NCBI GenBank assembly: GCA_017484135.1
Contig: JAFUTQ010000007.1
Location: forward strand, 1 to 44,848
Source of the DNA: Lachnospiraceae bacterium
GTDB taxonomy: Bacteria > Bacillota > Clostridia > Lachnospirales > Lachnospiraceae
Length of the DNA: 44,848 nucleotides
Direction of reading: 5' to 3'
Shown here: piece after piece, positions 15,096 through 41,545 of the stretch
How the letters are laid out: each line of letters opens with the position of its first letter
Position numbering within the stretch: position 1 is the stretch's first letter
Program-made: the position numbers and the translations under genes
The notes under the pieces: generated by a model
What the model was told of the DNA's origin: nothing
What the model saw: only the letters and a program-made list of their open reading frames with translations
The model's database searches: none

Positions 15096-15980
15096 CTACA
15101 GTAATCCATAAGCTTTCATTTCATCTGCCAGTTTTTCTCTGTTCTTCTCCTCCATCTCACCCAGCGGAGCCCGCAGCGAACCGACCTTTTTGCCCATCAG
15201 GTTCAGCGCGGCCTTGACCGGAATCGGATTTACCTCGGAGAAGAGGGCATCAATCAACGGAAGCGCCTCCCGCTGAAGCTTCTGTGCCGTGGCGAGATCT
15301 CCGTCCAGAAAGCTCTGACACAGCTGATGCACCTTCGTCGGCGCAACGTTCGCCCAAACGGAAATCACACCCTTTGCTCCGATGGACATAAGCGGCAGCA
15401 CAAGCGCGTCCTCTCCTGAGTACAAATCCAATTTTCCGTCTGTCAGATACATCGTCTTGGAGGCCTGCGCCAGATTTCCGGTTGCCTCCTTGAGTCCTAC
15501 GATATTTTCCTTTGTCCGAAACAGCTCTGCCACTGTCTCCGGCAAAATATTACATCCCGTTCTTCCGGGTACATTATAGAGAATGATCGGAAGCTTTGTG
15601 GCATCGGCAATCTGAGAATAATGTGCCACCAAGCCCTTCTGTGTCGCTTTGTTATAGTAAGGCGTCACGATCAGCGCTCCGTCTGCGCCGGCCTCCTCCG
15701 CCTCTTTTGTCAGGCGAACCGCGGTCGCGGTACAATTGGATCCGGTTCCTGCCACCACCGGGATGCGGTGTCCGGTAAATTCTACCGCCGCCTCGATCAC
15801 CTTGTGGTGCTCCTCCATGGAAAGCGTAGAGCTCTCGCCAGTGGTTCCTGCAATAATAATGCAGTCCGTGCCCTGATCGATCTGCTCATTGATCAGTTCC
15901 TCGAGTTTGTCATAGTTGACCTCTGAATTTTCCTTAAATGGTGTGATAATCGCCACACCGGAGCCTGTAAAAATCGCCAT
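15096..15980 (-). CDS. dapA: 4-hydroxy-tetrahydrodipicolinate synthase
   Basis: Class I aldolase of 294 residues that condenses pyruvate with aspartate semialdehyde. The GTTGES loop (45-50), Tyr135 in YNVPGRT with Arg140, and the Schiff-base lysine Lys164 in VGLKEATGN are all in place. The ribosome binding site GGAGGG is six bases before the ATG. It is the first gene of dapA-dapB. Its unusually long leader holds a lysine riboswitch with terminator and then a tandem array of structured repeats before the start codon. Confidence 0.97.
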   Translation of the reverse strand: MAIFTGSGVAIITPFKENSEVNYDKLEELINEQIDQGTDCIIIAGTTGESSTLSMEEHHKVIEAAVEFTGHRIPVVAGTGSNCTATAVRLTKEAEEAGADGALIVTPYYNKATQKGLVAHYSQIADATKLPIILYNVPGRTGCNILPETVAELFRTKENIVGLKEATGNLAQASKTMYLTDGKLDLYSGEDALVLPLMSIGAKGVISVWANVAPTKVHQLCQSFLDGDLATAQKLQREALPLIDALFSEVNPIPVKAALNLMGKKVGSLRAPLGEMEEKNREKLADEMKAYGLL

Positions 15981-16264: not shown

Positions 16265-16300
16265 CAATTCTAATCTGCCTGCGACACACGCATGTCACAC

Positions 16301-16461
16301 GATAGCTCTCCATCCACTCAGATGACAGTCATGAACCTGTTCGGCACATGCCCAAGAAAGAAACTGCAGTATTCCTCTCTTTCGGCGCTCGTTCCTTTCC
16401 CAGACCTTCCTCTGTTCCTGCAACATCCGGCATGGTACTCTTAACCCGCGCAACCTCTATC
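16301..16461 (-). promoter_or_regulatory. Lysine riboswitch (L box)
   Basis: The minus strand carries the L-box hallmarks. It opens with GATAGAGGTTGC and the AAGAGTA turn, has a central GGGAAAGGAACG...GCCGAAAG, then GACTGTCATC, and closes with GGATGGAGAGCTATC. The outer P1 helix is GATAG/CTATC, as in the lysC leader of Bacillus. With lysine bound, P1 and its flanks stay paired and the terminator at 16230-16264 forms; without lysine, GGATGGAG can pair with the terminator strand and allow read-through into dapA-dapB. Assigned from memory of the consensus, not by a covariance search. Confidence 0.88.
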
Positions 16462-16484
16462 CCTGCTTTTCACTTTTCATTCTA

Positions 16485-23376: not shown

Positions 23377-23510
23377 GGGTCAAACGGTCGTGTCGGCGGA
23401 GCCGACATGACCCCCCTTGCAGGAGAAGGTGCAGGGACAAGCGAGCTTTTCCCTGCGCCTTTTCCTGCAAGGGAGGTGCACATCGCAAAGCGATGCGCAC
23501 CGTTTGACCC
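23377..23510. repeat. Cloverleaf-like structured repeat, copy 1 (between typA and ssb)
   Basis: A 12-bp perfect outer stem (GGGTCAAACGGT at 23377-23388 with ACCGTTTGACCC at 23499-23510) encloses three hairpins. Hairpin a is 23386-23412 (12 bp, GGA loop; its first three bases are shared with the outer stem). Hairpin b is 23414-23473 (24 bp with two G-U pairs). Hairpin c is 23475-23501 (12 bp with one A-C mismatch, AAA loop). Copy 2 at 24385-24516 has the same layout, partly different sequence, and its own preserved pairing. No reading frame is evident. It fills much of the typA-ssb divergent region. Confidence 0.88.
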
Positions 23511-23592
23511 TCCTGGCAATGTCTCTTTTTTTCAAATTGTGAAGATTATGCGTGCAACATCCTAATTTTTTCTTAAATTTCTCGGTATACAA

Positions 23593-23622
23593 TTGACCAA
23601 CTTTGACATTTTAGCATATTAT
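23593..23622 (+). promoter_or_regulatory. Possible promoter for ssb
   Basis: TTGACC (23593-23598) and TATTAT (23617-23622) are 18 bases apart, about 110 bases before the ssb start. A second TTGACA at 23604 lacks a well-placed -10 box. The rest of 23511-23733 shows no gene. Confidence 0.45.
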
Positions 23623-23733
23623 GATTTTAGTGTCAAAAAGCAAATGCTGTTATCGACATGTTTTGCGAAGATTCCCCTTAAGGCAGATGATATGGTAAGG
23701 AAGTTCAAAACACACAGAAAGGGAGAAAAATTC

Positions 23734-24366
23734 ATGGCAGATAAAATTTTTGAAAACAATCAGGTATCCATTGAGGGTGAAATCGTCACAGAGTTTCGTT
23801 ACAGTCACGAGGTGTACGGGGAAGGCTTTTATATGGTGGATGTATCGGTAAATCGTCTGAGCAATTTTGCGGACTATATACCGGTAATGGTTTCGGAGCG
23901 ATTGATCGACACCACGCAGAATTACATAGGAAAGAAAATTCATGTAAACGGACAGTTTCGCTCCTATAACCGACATGAGGAGATTAAAAACAGACTGGTG
24001 CTGTCGGTTTTTGCCAGAGAACTGGAATTTGTAGATGACGAAGAGCCGACAGAGGATGTAAAGAGCAATGAGATTTTTATGGACGGATATATTTGTAAGA
24101 CTCCGATTTACCGAAAAACCCCGCTGGGCAGGGAGATCGCAGATCTGCTGGTCGCCGTAAACCGGTCATATGGAAAATCAGATTATATCCCCTGCATCTG
24201 CTGGGGAAGAAATGCCAGATTCTGCTCGGGCTTTGAGGTCGGAACACATGTACAGATCATCGGCCGTATCCAAAGCCGGGAATATGTAAAAAAAATCAGC
24301 GAGGACGAAGTAGAAAAACGCATCGCCTACGAAGTATCCGTCAGCAAAATCGAAAATATGGAATAA
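23734..24366 (+). CDS. Single-stranded DNA-binding protein with two OB folds
   Basis: Protein of 210 residues with two SSB-like OB segments in tandem. The first runs from NNQVSIEGEIVTEFRYSHE to about residue 100. The second runs from SNEIFMDGYICKTPIYRKTPLGREI to the end, with the SSB-like pattern ADLLVAVNRSYGKSDYIPCICWGRNA. The acidic flexible tail of canonical SSB is missing. It is therefore probably an accessory SSB paralogue of Clostridia rather than the main replication SSB. The ATG at 23734 follows GGGAG with eight bases between; the open frame upstream lacks family character. It is bracketed by two copies of a cloverleaf-like repeat. Confidence 0.85.
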   Translation: MADKIFENNQVSIEGEIVTEFRYSHEVYGEGFYMVDVSVNRLSNFADYIPVMVSERLIDTTQNYIGKKIHVNGQFRSYNRHEEIKNRLVLSVFARELEFVDDEEPTEDVKSNEIFMDGYICKTPIYRKTPLGREIADLLVAVNRSYGKSDYIPCICWGRNARFCSGFEVGTHVQIIGRIQSREYVKKISEDEVEKRIAYEVSVSKIENME

Positions 24367-24384
24367 AAAGACAAATCAATGTCA

Positions 24385-24516
24385 GGGACAAACGTCCATG
24401 TCGGCGCAGTCGGCATGGATACTTTGCAGGAGAAACCGCTTCGGAAAGCTCGCTTTTCGAAGCGGTTTCTTCTGCAAAGGAGTTCCCATCGTGAAACGAT
24501 GGGAACCTTTTGTCCC
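24385..24516. repeat. Cloverleaf-like structured repeat, copy 2 (between ssb and purH)
   Basis: The outer stem is GGGACAAA (24385-24392) with TTTGTCCC (24509-24516). Hairpin a is 24395-24419 (11 bp, two G-U pairs, GCA loop). Hairpin b is 24422-24479 (28 bp with two G-U pairs and a two-base loop). Hairpin c is 24482-24506 (11 bp, perfect, GAA loop). Landmarks shared with copy 1 include TGTCGGC, TTGCAGGAGAA, CTGCAA, GGAG and the CATCG...CGATG hairpin. It fills the convergent space after ssb and could also terminate transcription from both sides, although no long T-tract is present. Confidence 0.88.
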
Positions 24517-41395: not shown

Positions 41396-41424
41396 ATTCT
41401 ATAATATATAATATGAATTTTCAA
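41396..41424 (-). promoter_or_regulatory. Sigma-A promoter for efp
   Basis: TTGAAA (41419-41424) and TAGAAT (41396-41401) are 17 bases apart on the minus strand, in a very A/T-rich stretch. Confidence 0.75.
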
Positions 41425-41440
41425 GCCCTTTTTTGTTTTT

Positions 41441-41545
41441 AACGTCATCGCTTTGCACAAAAAATCGCTTCGGAAAGCCTGCTTTCCGAAACGATTTCTT
41501 GTGCAAAAGGGTCTATGCCGACTCTGTCGGCATGACCGCTTGCCC
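41441..41545 (-). repeat. Cloverleaf-like structured repeat, copy 3 (degenerate)
   Basis: On the minus strand, hairpin a (41511-41536, arms GTCGGCAT/ATGCCGAC plus flanks) is followed by hairpin b (41452-41507, outer arms TTTGCACAA/TTGTGCAAA, containing TTTCGGAAAGC as in copy 2). The tail AAAGCGATG resembles the end of hairpin c in copy 1. The second half of the outer stem and most of hairpin c are missing. It lies 19 bases after the chemoreceptor stop codon and before the efp promoter. Confidence 0.75.

What the first reader, a model, noticed from the sequence alone, without database searches (positions are those of the whole stretch)
23377..24516. Cloverleaf-like structured repeats bracket the ssb gene
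Seen directly: two elements of about 130 nt, one on each side of ssb, share a layout of an outer stem (12 and 8 bp) enclosing three hairpins (a: 12/11 bp; b: 24/28 bp; c: 12/11 bp). Their primary sequences differ a good deal in hairpins b and c, yet both arms changed together, and the remaining differences are mostly G-U wobbles. Landmarks such as TGTCGGC and TTGCAGGAGAA show common origin. Inference: selection for a folded RNA or single-stranded DNA shape, or a mobile hairpin element spread by a helper transposase. The position around a single-stranded-DNA-binding protein gene could be chance or could mean the protein binds them. I do not recognise this as a known RNA family or mobile element.
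Basis: partly seen in the sequence, partly recalled or inferred. Interest (0 to 1): 0.8.

Follow-up and report, generated by a model that had tools for sequence, protein, structure and literature searches.

The report
Cloverleaf-shaped mini-transposon flanking ssb
The two folded elements beside the ssb gene are copies of a small jumping DNA element found at 85 or more places in this bacterium's genome; its three-hairpin cloverleaf shape is kept on both DNA strands alike, and its position around ssb looks like chance.

Summary
In detail: both elements fold as an outer stem around three hairpins (z about -12.6). They are not specific to ssb. A covariance model built from them finds 85 places in the same 2.55-Mb assembly. 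Covariation is very strong: 47 of 53 pairs change on both sides. The G-U argument fails: over 81 copies G.T and A.C mismatches are equal (82 v 78) and the + strand folds better in 40. So it is not a one-strand RNA.

Best read as a MITE. Of 17 own copies with both ends GATTTGAGGGGCAAAAGG-like, 6 carry 6-8 bp target duplications (null 0.5); so do 13 of 23 elements with related ends in other genomes (null 1.0) and two complete IS1182-like insertion sequences. The bipA-ssb gap lacks the element in the 5 of 7 congeners aligned. The cloverleaf occurs in five other genomes.

Unusual: 35 of 80 copies have extra copy-specific stem, perhaps older ends nested around newer ones; and the same core sits inside two kinds of ends. 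No matching transposase was found in this 83%-complete assembly. New variant of a known kind.

The parts
23377..23510 (+). Cloverleaf element copy 1 (outer stem 23377-23388 with 23499-23510), between the bipA start (minus strand) and the ssb start
   Evidence: 160.4 bits; a training sequence of the model
23386..23412 (+). Copy 1, hairpin a
   Evidence: minimum-energy fold
23414..23473 (+). Copy 1, long hairpin b
   Evidence: inverted repeat I2
23475..23501 (+). Copy 1, hairpin c
24385..24516 (+). Cloverleaf element copy 2 (outer stem 24385-24392 with 24509-24516), between the ssb stop and the end of the purH-like gene (minus strand)
   Evidence: 146.1 bits; a training sequence of the model
24394..24420 (+). 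Copy 2, hairpin a
24422..24479 (+). Copy 2, long hairpin b
   Evidence: inverted repeat I3
24482..24506 (+). Copy 2, hairpin c
41422..41542 (-). Third, truncated copy (hairpins a and b kept, hairpin c lost)
   Evidence: (E 3.3e-11, model 9-134), sequence
23734..24366 (+). ssb-like gene (210 aa) between the two copies; read as a bystander
   Evidence: Pfam SSB at residues 112-207

Best explanation
[quoted passage not shown] An IS1182-like DDE transposase supplied in trans most likely moves them, duplicating 6-8 bp of AT-rich target (mostly AT-N3/4-AT). Shown: copy number, insertion relative to congeners, ends, target duplications in part of the copies, and insertion sequences with the same class of ends and duplications in other genomes of the family. 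Inferred: that such a transposase moves this family, and by which reaction; no matching transposase was found in this assembly. The core stays palindromic with both arms changing together and symmetrically for the two strands, so what is kept is a DNA fold (cruciform or four-way junction), a fold of whichever strand is transcribed, or the result of arm-to-arm correction. Long copy-specific outer stems are inferred to be nested remains of older, related ends.
For: 85 distinct places in the own assembly from a two-sequence model (150 of 280 candidates scored). With it 1 of 7 congeners and 0 of 23 further genomes matched. The bipA-ssb gap lacks the element in 5 of 7 congeners aligned; three other copies have contiguous empty sites in G004. 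Duplications of 6 bp or more at fixed ends: 6 of 17 own copies that could be paired (null mean 0.51, max 3 of 200 shuffles), 13 of 23 other-genome elements (null 1.03, max 5). L238 and L239 are 1.85-kb insertion sequences with ends GATGTTGGGG(T)CAAA and duplications ATATAAT and ATCAATAT; their transposases hit DUF772 and DDE_Tnp_1_6 in Pfam, and IS1182 is the best NCBIfam model. L225, L226 and L188 have ATGATT(TA/AG)AGCGTCAAAAGG upstream of related transposase genes, 3 mismatches in 20 to the type-A end. G258 holds the same cloverleaf with IS-like ends ATGATGTTGGGGTCAAAAG. Covariation: 95.6% of cells paired v 79.6% shuffled, score 0.429 v 0.133, 0 of 500 shuffles. Strand symmetry: 82 G.T v 78 A.C in 81 own copies, 22 v 25 in 27 copies of five other genomes.
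Against: No matching transposase in the own assembly by protein (which had no positive control) or by DUF772; the four DUF772 places in congeners show no convincing ends of this kind. The assembly is 83% complete, so absence is weak. 11 of the 17 paired own copies show no duplication of 6 bp or more, and the other 68 of 85 copies were not paired by the end pattern. Only 31 of 79 copies cluster on type-A ends. The type-A end differs from the ends of the complete insertion sequences at 5-6 of 18 positions. Among IS-length pairs 2 of 4 have duplications against a null of 0.54, max 2, too few to test, and one of the four spans two MITEs; a third real insertion sequence, L237, has none. All four transposases score below NCBIfam's IS1182 cut-off (60.7-126.4 v 270 bits). 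L225, L226 and L188 show only the left end. In G194 the same core sits within other ends, so its mover there may differ.
Confidence: 0.8

Rival explanations
1. A structured RNA (sRNA or cis-regulatory RNA) acting from a fixed strand, selected for its cloverleaf.
For: Very stable folds and strong covariation; palindromes lie a median 15.5 nt from called stop codons.
Against: G.T equals A.C mismatches, 82 v 78, and the + strand is more stable in 40 of 81; similar in 27 copies of other genomes. Orientation to tandem neighbours is 25 v 25. No Rfam family at gathering scores except a lysine riboswitch elsewhere; permissive hits at the elements are mostly microRNA models far below threshold. Target duplications.
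Confidence: 0.05
2. A REP-like hairpin element moved as single-stranded DNA by a Y1/HUH (IS200/IS605 or RAYT) transposase.
For: Intergenic imperfect palindromes in high copy number.
Against: No Y1_Tnp match in the own assembly (5 of 14 control genomes rang); target-site duplications and matched terminal inverted repeats, which HUH transposition does not make (established knowledge, recalled).
Confidence: 0.04
3. The core is a structure-addressed unit that inserts into the loops of palindromes; long outer stems are captured target stems, akin to the stem-loop-replacing transposition proposed for IS1272.
For: 35 of 80 copies have 8 nt or more of extra outer stem, mostly not shared between copies. 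Some show nested ends, e.g. GATTTGAGGGGC twice in C91 and ATTTGAGGGGC outside an unrelated inner arm in C105:87874. IS1272, listed in the IS1182 family, took stem-loops as targets in three new insertions (PMC5678879, abstract and passages). L237, an IS1182-like element, is flanked by a 12-bp inverted repeat.
Against: Palindromes with arms of 22 nt or more but without the core are nearly absent: one clear case (L041) in 357 kb of partly overlapping own sequence, 0 in 126 kb of congener sequence (most of the 28 it listed as non-core are core copies missed by the motif filter, by my reading). Type-A copies show target duplications, whereas the new IS1272 insertions had none. The three orthologous empty sites show no palindrome. 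In the paper older IS1272 copies also had non-palindromic targets.
Confidence: 0.25
4. Outer stems and hairpins are kept perfect, and extended, by replication template switching (quasi-palindrome correction) after insertion, without selection on shape.
For: Arms match within copies although copies differ. Hairpin b tips occur in mutually inverted forms (e.g. L018 and L033), and hairpin a as GCCGAC/GTCGGC, GTCGGC/GCCGAC and GCCGGC/GCCGGC. Strand symmetry.
Against: The three-hairpin layout is shared by six genomes with very different sequences, which correction alone does not explain.
Confidence: 0.3

Closest known systems
MITEs of bacteria (e.g. QMITE2 of Coxiella, Chunjie of Geobacter; review PMC10969869, passages seen)
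   Same: Short, non-coding, intergenic, high copy, terminal inverted repeats, direct repeats (7-9 bp for QMITE2), strongly folded; truncated, REP-like derivatives.
   Different: Here the core is a covarying three-hairpin cloverleaf shared by several genera while the ends vary; 35 of 80 copies have extra copy-specific stem.
IS1182-family insertion sequences, including IS1272
   Same: Related transposases (DUF772, DDE_Tnp_1_6) in the family carry the same class of ends, and two of three complete elements the same kind of 7-8 bp duplication; affinity for palindromes is reported for IS1272 (PMC5678879, passages).
   Different: The element is non-coding; new IS1272 insertions replaced stem-loops without target duplication; the transposases here fall below NCBIfam's IS1182 cut-off.
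REP/REPIN elements with RAYT (Y1) transposases
   Same: Intergenic palindromes in many copies (recalled).
   Different: Target duplications; about 145 bp with three hairpins; no Y1 gene found.
BOX, RUP and SPRITE repeats of pneumococcus
   Same: Small folded repeats that cluster and insert into one another (review PMC10969869, passage).
   Different: No sequence comparison was made here.

Membership tests
MITE | Terminal inverted repeats | tested here: met
   17 own copies and 23 other-genome elements pair both ends; 31 of 79 own copies cluster on type-A ends
MITE | Target-site duplication | tested here: met
   6 of 17 own v null 0.51; 13 of 23 others v null 1.03; not seen in the rest
MITE | Dispersed, high copy, absent from orthologous sites | tested here: met
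   85 places; empty sites for copy 1 and three other copies; the site of copy 2 could not be compared because its two neighbours are not adjacent in the congeners
MITE | Ends match an autonomous element | tested here: inconclusive
   Same end class in IS1182-like elements of other genomes, 3 of 20 (L225, L188) to 6 of 18 (L239) mismatches; none found in the own assembly
MITE | Mobilised in trans by that transposase | not testable with these tools
   Needs an experiment
IS1182-family derivative | Transposase of the partner passes the IS1182 model | tested here: not met
   NF033551 is the best NCBIfam model for all four proteins but at 60.7-126.4 bits v cut-off 270; hence 'IS1182-like', not a member
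IS1182-family derivative | Partner transposase in the same genome | tested here: not met
   assembly 83% complete
REP/RAYT (Y1) | Y1 transposase in the genome | tested here: not met
Rfam structured RNA | Match above a gathering score | tested here: not met
Strand-specific structured RNA | G-U tolerated more than A-C on the functional strand | tested here: not met
   82 v 78; 22 v 25

The most novel reading that the evidence does not exclude
The three-hairpin cloverleaf is a portable DNA four-way-junction module, conserved across genera and carried by mini-transposons with at least two unrelated kinds of ends (IS1182-like ends in G000 and G258; TTGAGTTTCC-type ends in G194). Its shape, not its sequence, is the address: new copies insert at the apex of older palindromes, so that elements stack like Russian dolls and build copy-specific stems of up to about 75 bp.
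Probability: 0.22. Interest if true: 0.75.

Novelty: new variant of a known kind. Interest (0 to 1): 0.5.

Why it matters
It turns a puzzling pair of folded repeats into a defined mobile family with ends, target duplications and a candidate class of partner, and it warns that strong base-pair covariation can come from DNA palindromes rather than from a one-strand RNA: comparing G-T with A-C mismatches separates the two. If stem capture or nesting is real, the family is a natural record of structure-directed insertion that could test how IS1182-like transposases choose targets. The conserved core inside two kinds of ends raises the question what a cloverleaf does for a transposon.

Tried and rejected
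Link to ssb: rejected; copies are genome-wide and 85 random places give 2.8 neighbour pairs within 1,008 nt (two observed). Rfam: no family at the elements. Y1/RAYT helper: no match. TTGCAGGAGAA as a landmark: of its 10 places in the assembly only the two window ones are elements among those I folded; the script read the forward strand only, so three minus-strand places were not folded. Plasmids and phages: no match to copy 2. Viral contigs: no match to two exact patterns. Genome contigs: one pattern, one truncated copy in a Lachnospiraceae MAG from roe deer rumen (the tool says records very near the own genome may be left out). Insertion into pre-existing long palindromes: not supported. Two ends 1.5 kb apart in L234: the gene between them is MraW-like, and pairs the first end with another about 180 bp away, so two MITEs beside a bystander gene. 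Congener DUF772 genes: other ends. End pattern in other genomes: 56 of 397 genomes matched, own genome included; the reversed control pattern rang in about ten; of 30 loci folded about a third look like chance matches, not elements. Model R2: 14 of 397 genomes (own included) at E 1e-3 or better; eight of them are weak (3.7e-5 to 7.8e-4) and three of those that I folded, L254, L255 and L257, were other hairpins, so I count six.

Papers. Six searches surfaced no description of this family: 'cloverleaf, intergenic, repeat, Lachnospiraceae' 0 papers; 'miniature inverted-repeat, Lachnospiraceae' 3; 'IS1182, MITE' 12; a MITE/Clostridia search 26 papers with at least 5 of 6 terms, 20 listed; two IS1182 stem-loop searches 581 and 56 papers, 20 listed each. 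These were seen as listings and abstract starts only, except PMC5678879 (abstract and passages) and PMC10969869 (passages). The library is open-access papers only. No IS or MITE sequence catalogue was at hand.

Limits. 85 is a lower bound: only 150 of 280 candidates were scored. From its 136 rows I merged the two strands of one place, dropped one overlapping row (C1:69013) and dropped nine rows with E above 0.01. In one search only 8 candidates per genome were scored. Alignment A3 holds 77 of the 85 copies (eight fragmentary or rearranged ones left out), and its structure was derived from the same alignment, which favours it in the controls. In the cross-genome alignment A4 the predicted consensus does not draw hairpin a. 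The mismatch count used the 81 copies of 132 nt or more. Gene neighbours come from my own crude codon-score caller; it put one copy (C28:30109) inside an ORF. Palindromes that run to contig ends may be assembly fold-back; L029, L031, L038, L084 and L091 were left out but not. The 17 + 23 pairs are those whose two ends match a pattern with up to 4 substitutions. The own sequence overlaps itself and is a sample around elements. Direct repeats in G194 and nested ends were read by eye.

Full report
What is there. The window holds two complete cloverleaf elements at 23377-23510 and 24385-24516, on either side of an ssb-like gene, and a truncated one at 41422-41542 on the minus strand. The folds are far beyond chance: -109.3 and -91.7 kcal/mol, z about -12.6, 0 of 200 shuffles as good.

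How many. A covariance model from just these two copies (R1) gives 136 matches on both strands in the own assembly (2,545,834 bases, 116 contigs, 83% complete). After merging strands these are 85 distinct places with E at or below 5.1e-7 (nine rows above E 0.01 and one overlapping row dropped). Only 150 of 280 candidates were scored. With the same model 1 of 7 congeners (G005, 6 matches) and 0 of 23 further genomes (11 of the family, 12 of the order) matched.

Insertion. The bipA-ssb gap has no such element in the five congeners that I aligned, of seven. The site of copy 2 cannot be compared: in the congeners the purH-like gene is not next to ssb. For three other copies (L015, L043, L036) the joined flanks match one contiguous stretch of G004, so the empty sites are visible; none holds the element or a long palindrome (12 loci whole and part of a thirteenth were asked, three answered across the junction). 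These three stretches match at 71-77% identity, so the exact insertion base cannot be read.

Where. With a crude gene caller, palindromes lie a median 15.5 nt from stop codons and 80 nt from start codons. Neighbours are in tandem for 50, convergent for 17, divergent for 10 and undetermined for 8 of 85 copies. Orientation to tandem neighbours is 25 same, 25 opposite.

DNA or RNA. In an alignment of 77 copies, 47 of 53 pairs change on both sides, 95.6% of cells pair (79.6% shuffled; 37-45% when slid), and the covariation score is 0.429 against 0.133 (0 of 500 shuffles; the structure comes from the same alignment). A one-strand RNA should tolerate G-U but not A-C. Over 81 copies there are 82 G.T and 78 A.C mismatches, and the + strand is more stable in 40 of 81. 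In 27 copies from five other genomes the numbers are 22 and 25, and 11 of 27. So the fold is kept on both strands alike: as DNA, as RNA in either orientation, or through arm-to-arm correction. Mutually inverted hairpin tips in different copies fit events at the DNA level.

Ends and target duplications. Thirty-one of 79 copies cluster on ends of the form ATGATTTGAGGGGCAAAAGG. Taking GAT...ATC as the ends, 17 own copies could be paired and 6 of them have 6-8 bp direct repeats (ATGACAT, ATTATAT, ATAAAAT, ATATAAT, ATATGTAT, ATAAAT) against 0.51 expected from shuffled flanks; 11 have none. The end pattern with up to two mismatches occurs in 56 of 397 genomes of the family, own included (the reversed pattern rang in about ten). 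The loci read there include multi-hairpin units of about 200 bp with related ends, and also chance matches; 13 of 23 paired units in other genomes have duplications of 6 bp or more against 1.03 expected.

Partner. In L225, L226 and L188 such an end lies upstream of a transposase gene, with 3 mismatches in 20 to the type-A end; only left ends are seen there. A search with the L225 protein matched 8 of 200 family genomes. Among its loci, L238 and L239 are complete 1.85-kb insertion sequences with ends GATGTTGGGG(T)CAAA and duplications ATATAAT and ATCAATAT; L237 (2.0 kb) has similar ends but no duplication. IS-length pairs are too few to test (2 of 4, null 0.54). The L238 and L239 proteins hit DUF772 and DDE_Tnp_1_6 in Pfam; IS1182 is the best NCBIfam model for all four proteins scanned, below its cut-off. 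The own assembly shows no such gene, and the four DUF772 places in congeners show no convincing ends of this kind.

Spread of the core. A model of 77 copies (R2) finds strong matches in six of 397 family genomes: G000, G005, G194, G258, G325 and G376, five genera (eight further weak genomes not counted; 8 candidates per genome scored). The layout is the same although sequences differ widely; 38 of 44 predicted pairs change on both sides in a cross-genome alignment of 22 copies, in which hairpin a is not drawn by the consensus. In G258 the ends are the IS-like ATGATGTTGGGGTCAAAAG. In G194 the core lies inside other outer ends in all eight copies that I read (TTGAGTTTCC in seven, TTGAGGTTTCC in one), with what look by eye like 8-11 bp direct repeats in several. 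So the core travels with more than one kind of end.

Copy-specific stems. In 35 of 80 copies the outer stem goes on for 8 nt or more beyond the usual end, up to 60 nt, with sequence mostly not shared between copies. Palindromes with arms of 22 nt or more but without the core are nearly absent. The left arms are G-rich and the right arms C-rich (G above C in 32 copies, below in 1). This mirror skew goes on outside the detectable stem, fades over about 60 nt and is gone by 100 nt, as expected if the outside is made of older, decaying inverted ends of the GGGG...CCCC type. Several copies show nested ends directly (C91, C105:87874, C68:44462). I therefore favour nesting of related elements at the same spots, helped by arm correction; insertion guided by palindromic structure, as proposed for IS1272 (PMC5678879, abstract and passages), is possible but not shown.

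Verdict. The family is a MITE family by its ends, duplications and distribution, associated with IS1182-like insertion sequences, with an unusual covarying cloverleaf core and unusual stems. The position around ssb looks like chance. New variant of a known kind; interest 0.5.

Noticed in passing
L114 about 1540-1625, L089, L092; also L130, L137, L041, L042, L066, L073, L079, L201: A second dispersed repeat of about 85 nt (AGGAGGAAGCCCAATGAGC...GGCGCGTGCCG), with a ribosome-binding-site-like start and a short reading frame (by eye), occurs alone, in tandem (L079; L130 in part), and inserted at the apex of hairpin c in three cloverleaf copies; one relative lies in another genome (L201).
   Followed up: partly
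L250, L262, L268, L272-L276 (genome G194): The same cloverleaf core lies inside different outer inverted repeats (TTGAGTTTCC type) with apparent 8-11 bp direct repeats in several copies, suggesting a different mover.
   Followed up: partly
L134 about 1811, L138 about 2501, L107 about 1501, L103, L111, L112: Short palindromes and one-ended remnants with the family's ends, which look like deletion derivatives that have lost hairpins.
   Followed up: partly
L078 1501-1640 (G000:C61:2832-2971): A strongly diverged copy with quite different hairpin sequences lies directly beside a fragment of an ordinary copy.
   Followed up: no
L029, L031, L038, L084, L091: Elements lie at or near contig ends; some contigs end in fold-back sequence, so the repeats may break or mislead this assembly.
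   Followed up: partly
L237 806-2857 (genome G136): An IS1182-like insertion sequence without a clear target duplication is flanked by a 12-bp inverted repeat, GCTTTATATTAT / ATAATATAAAGC, as if placed in a palindrome.
   Followed up: no
window 23734-24366: The 210-aa ssb-like protein matches the Pfam SSB domain only in its second half (112-207); the first half may be a second, divergent OB fold (guess).
   Followed up: no
window 16295-16467, minus strand: Lysine riboswitch (108 bits) upstream of a dihydrodipicolinate synthase gene at 15096-15980.
   Followed up: no
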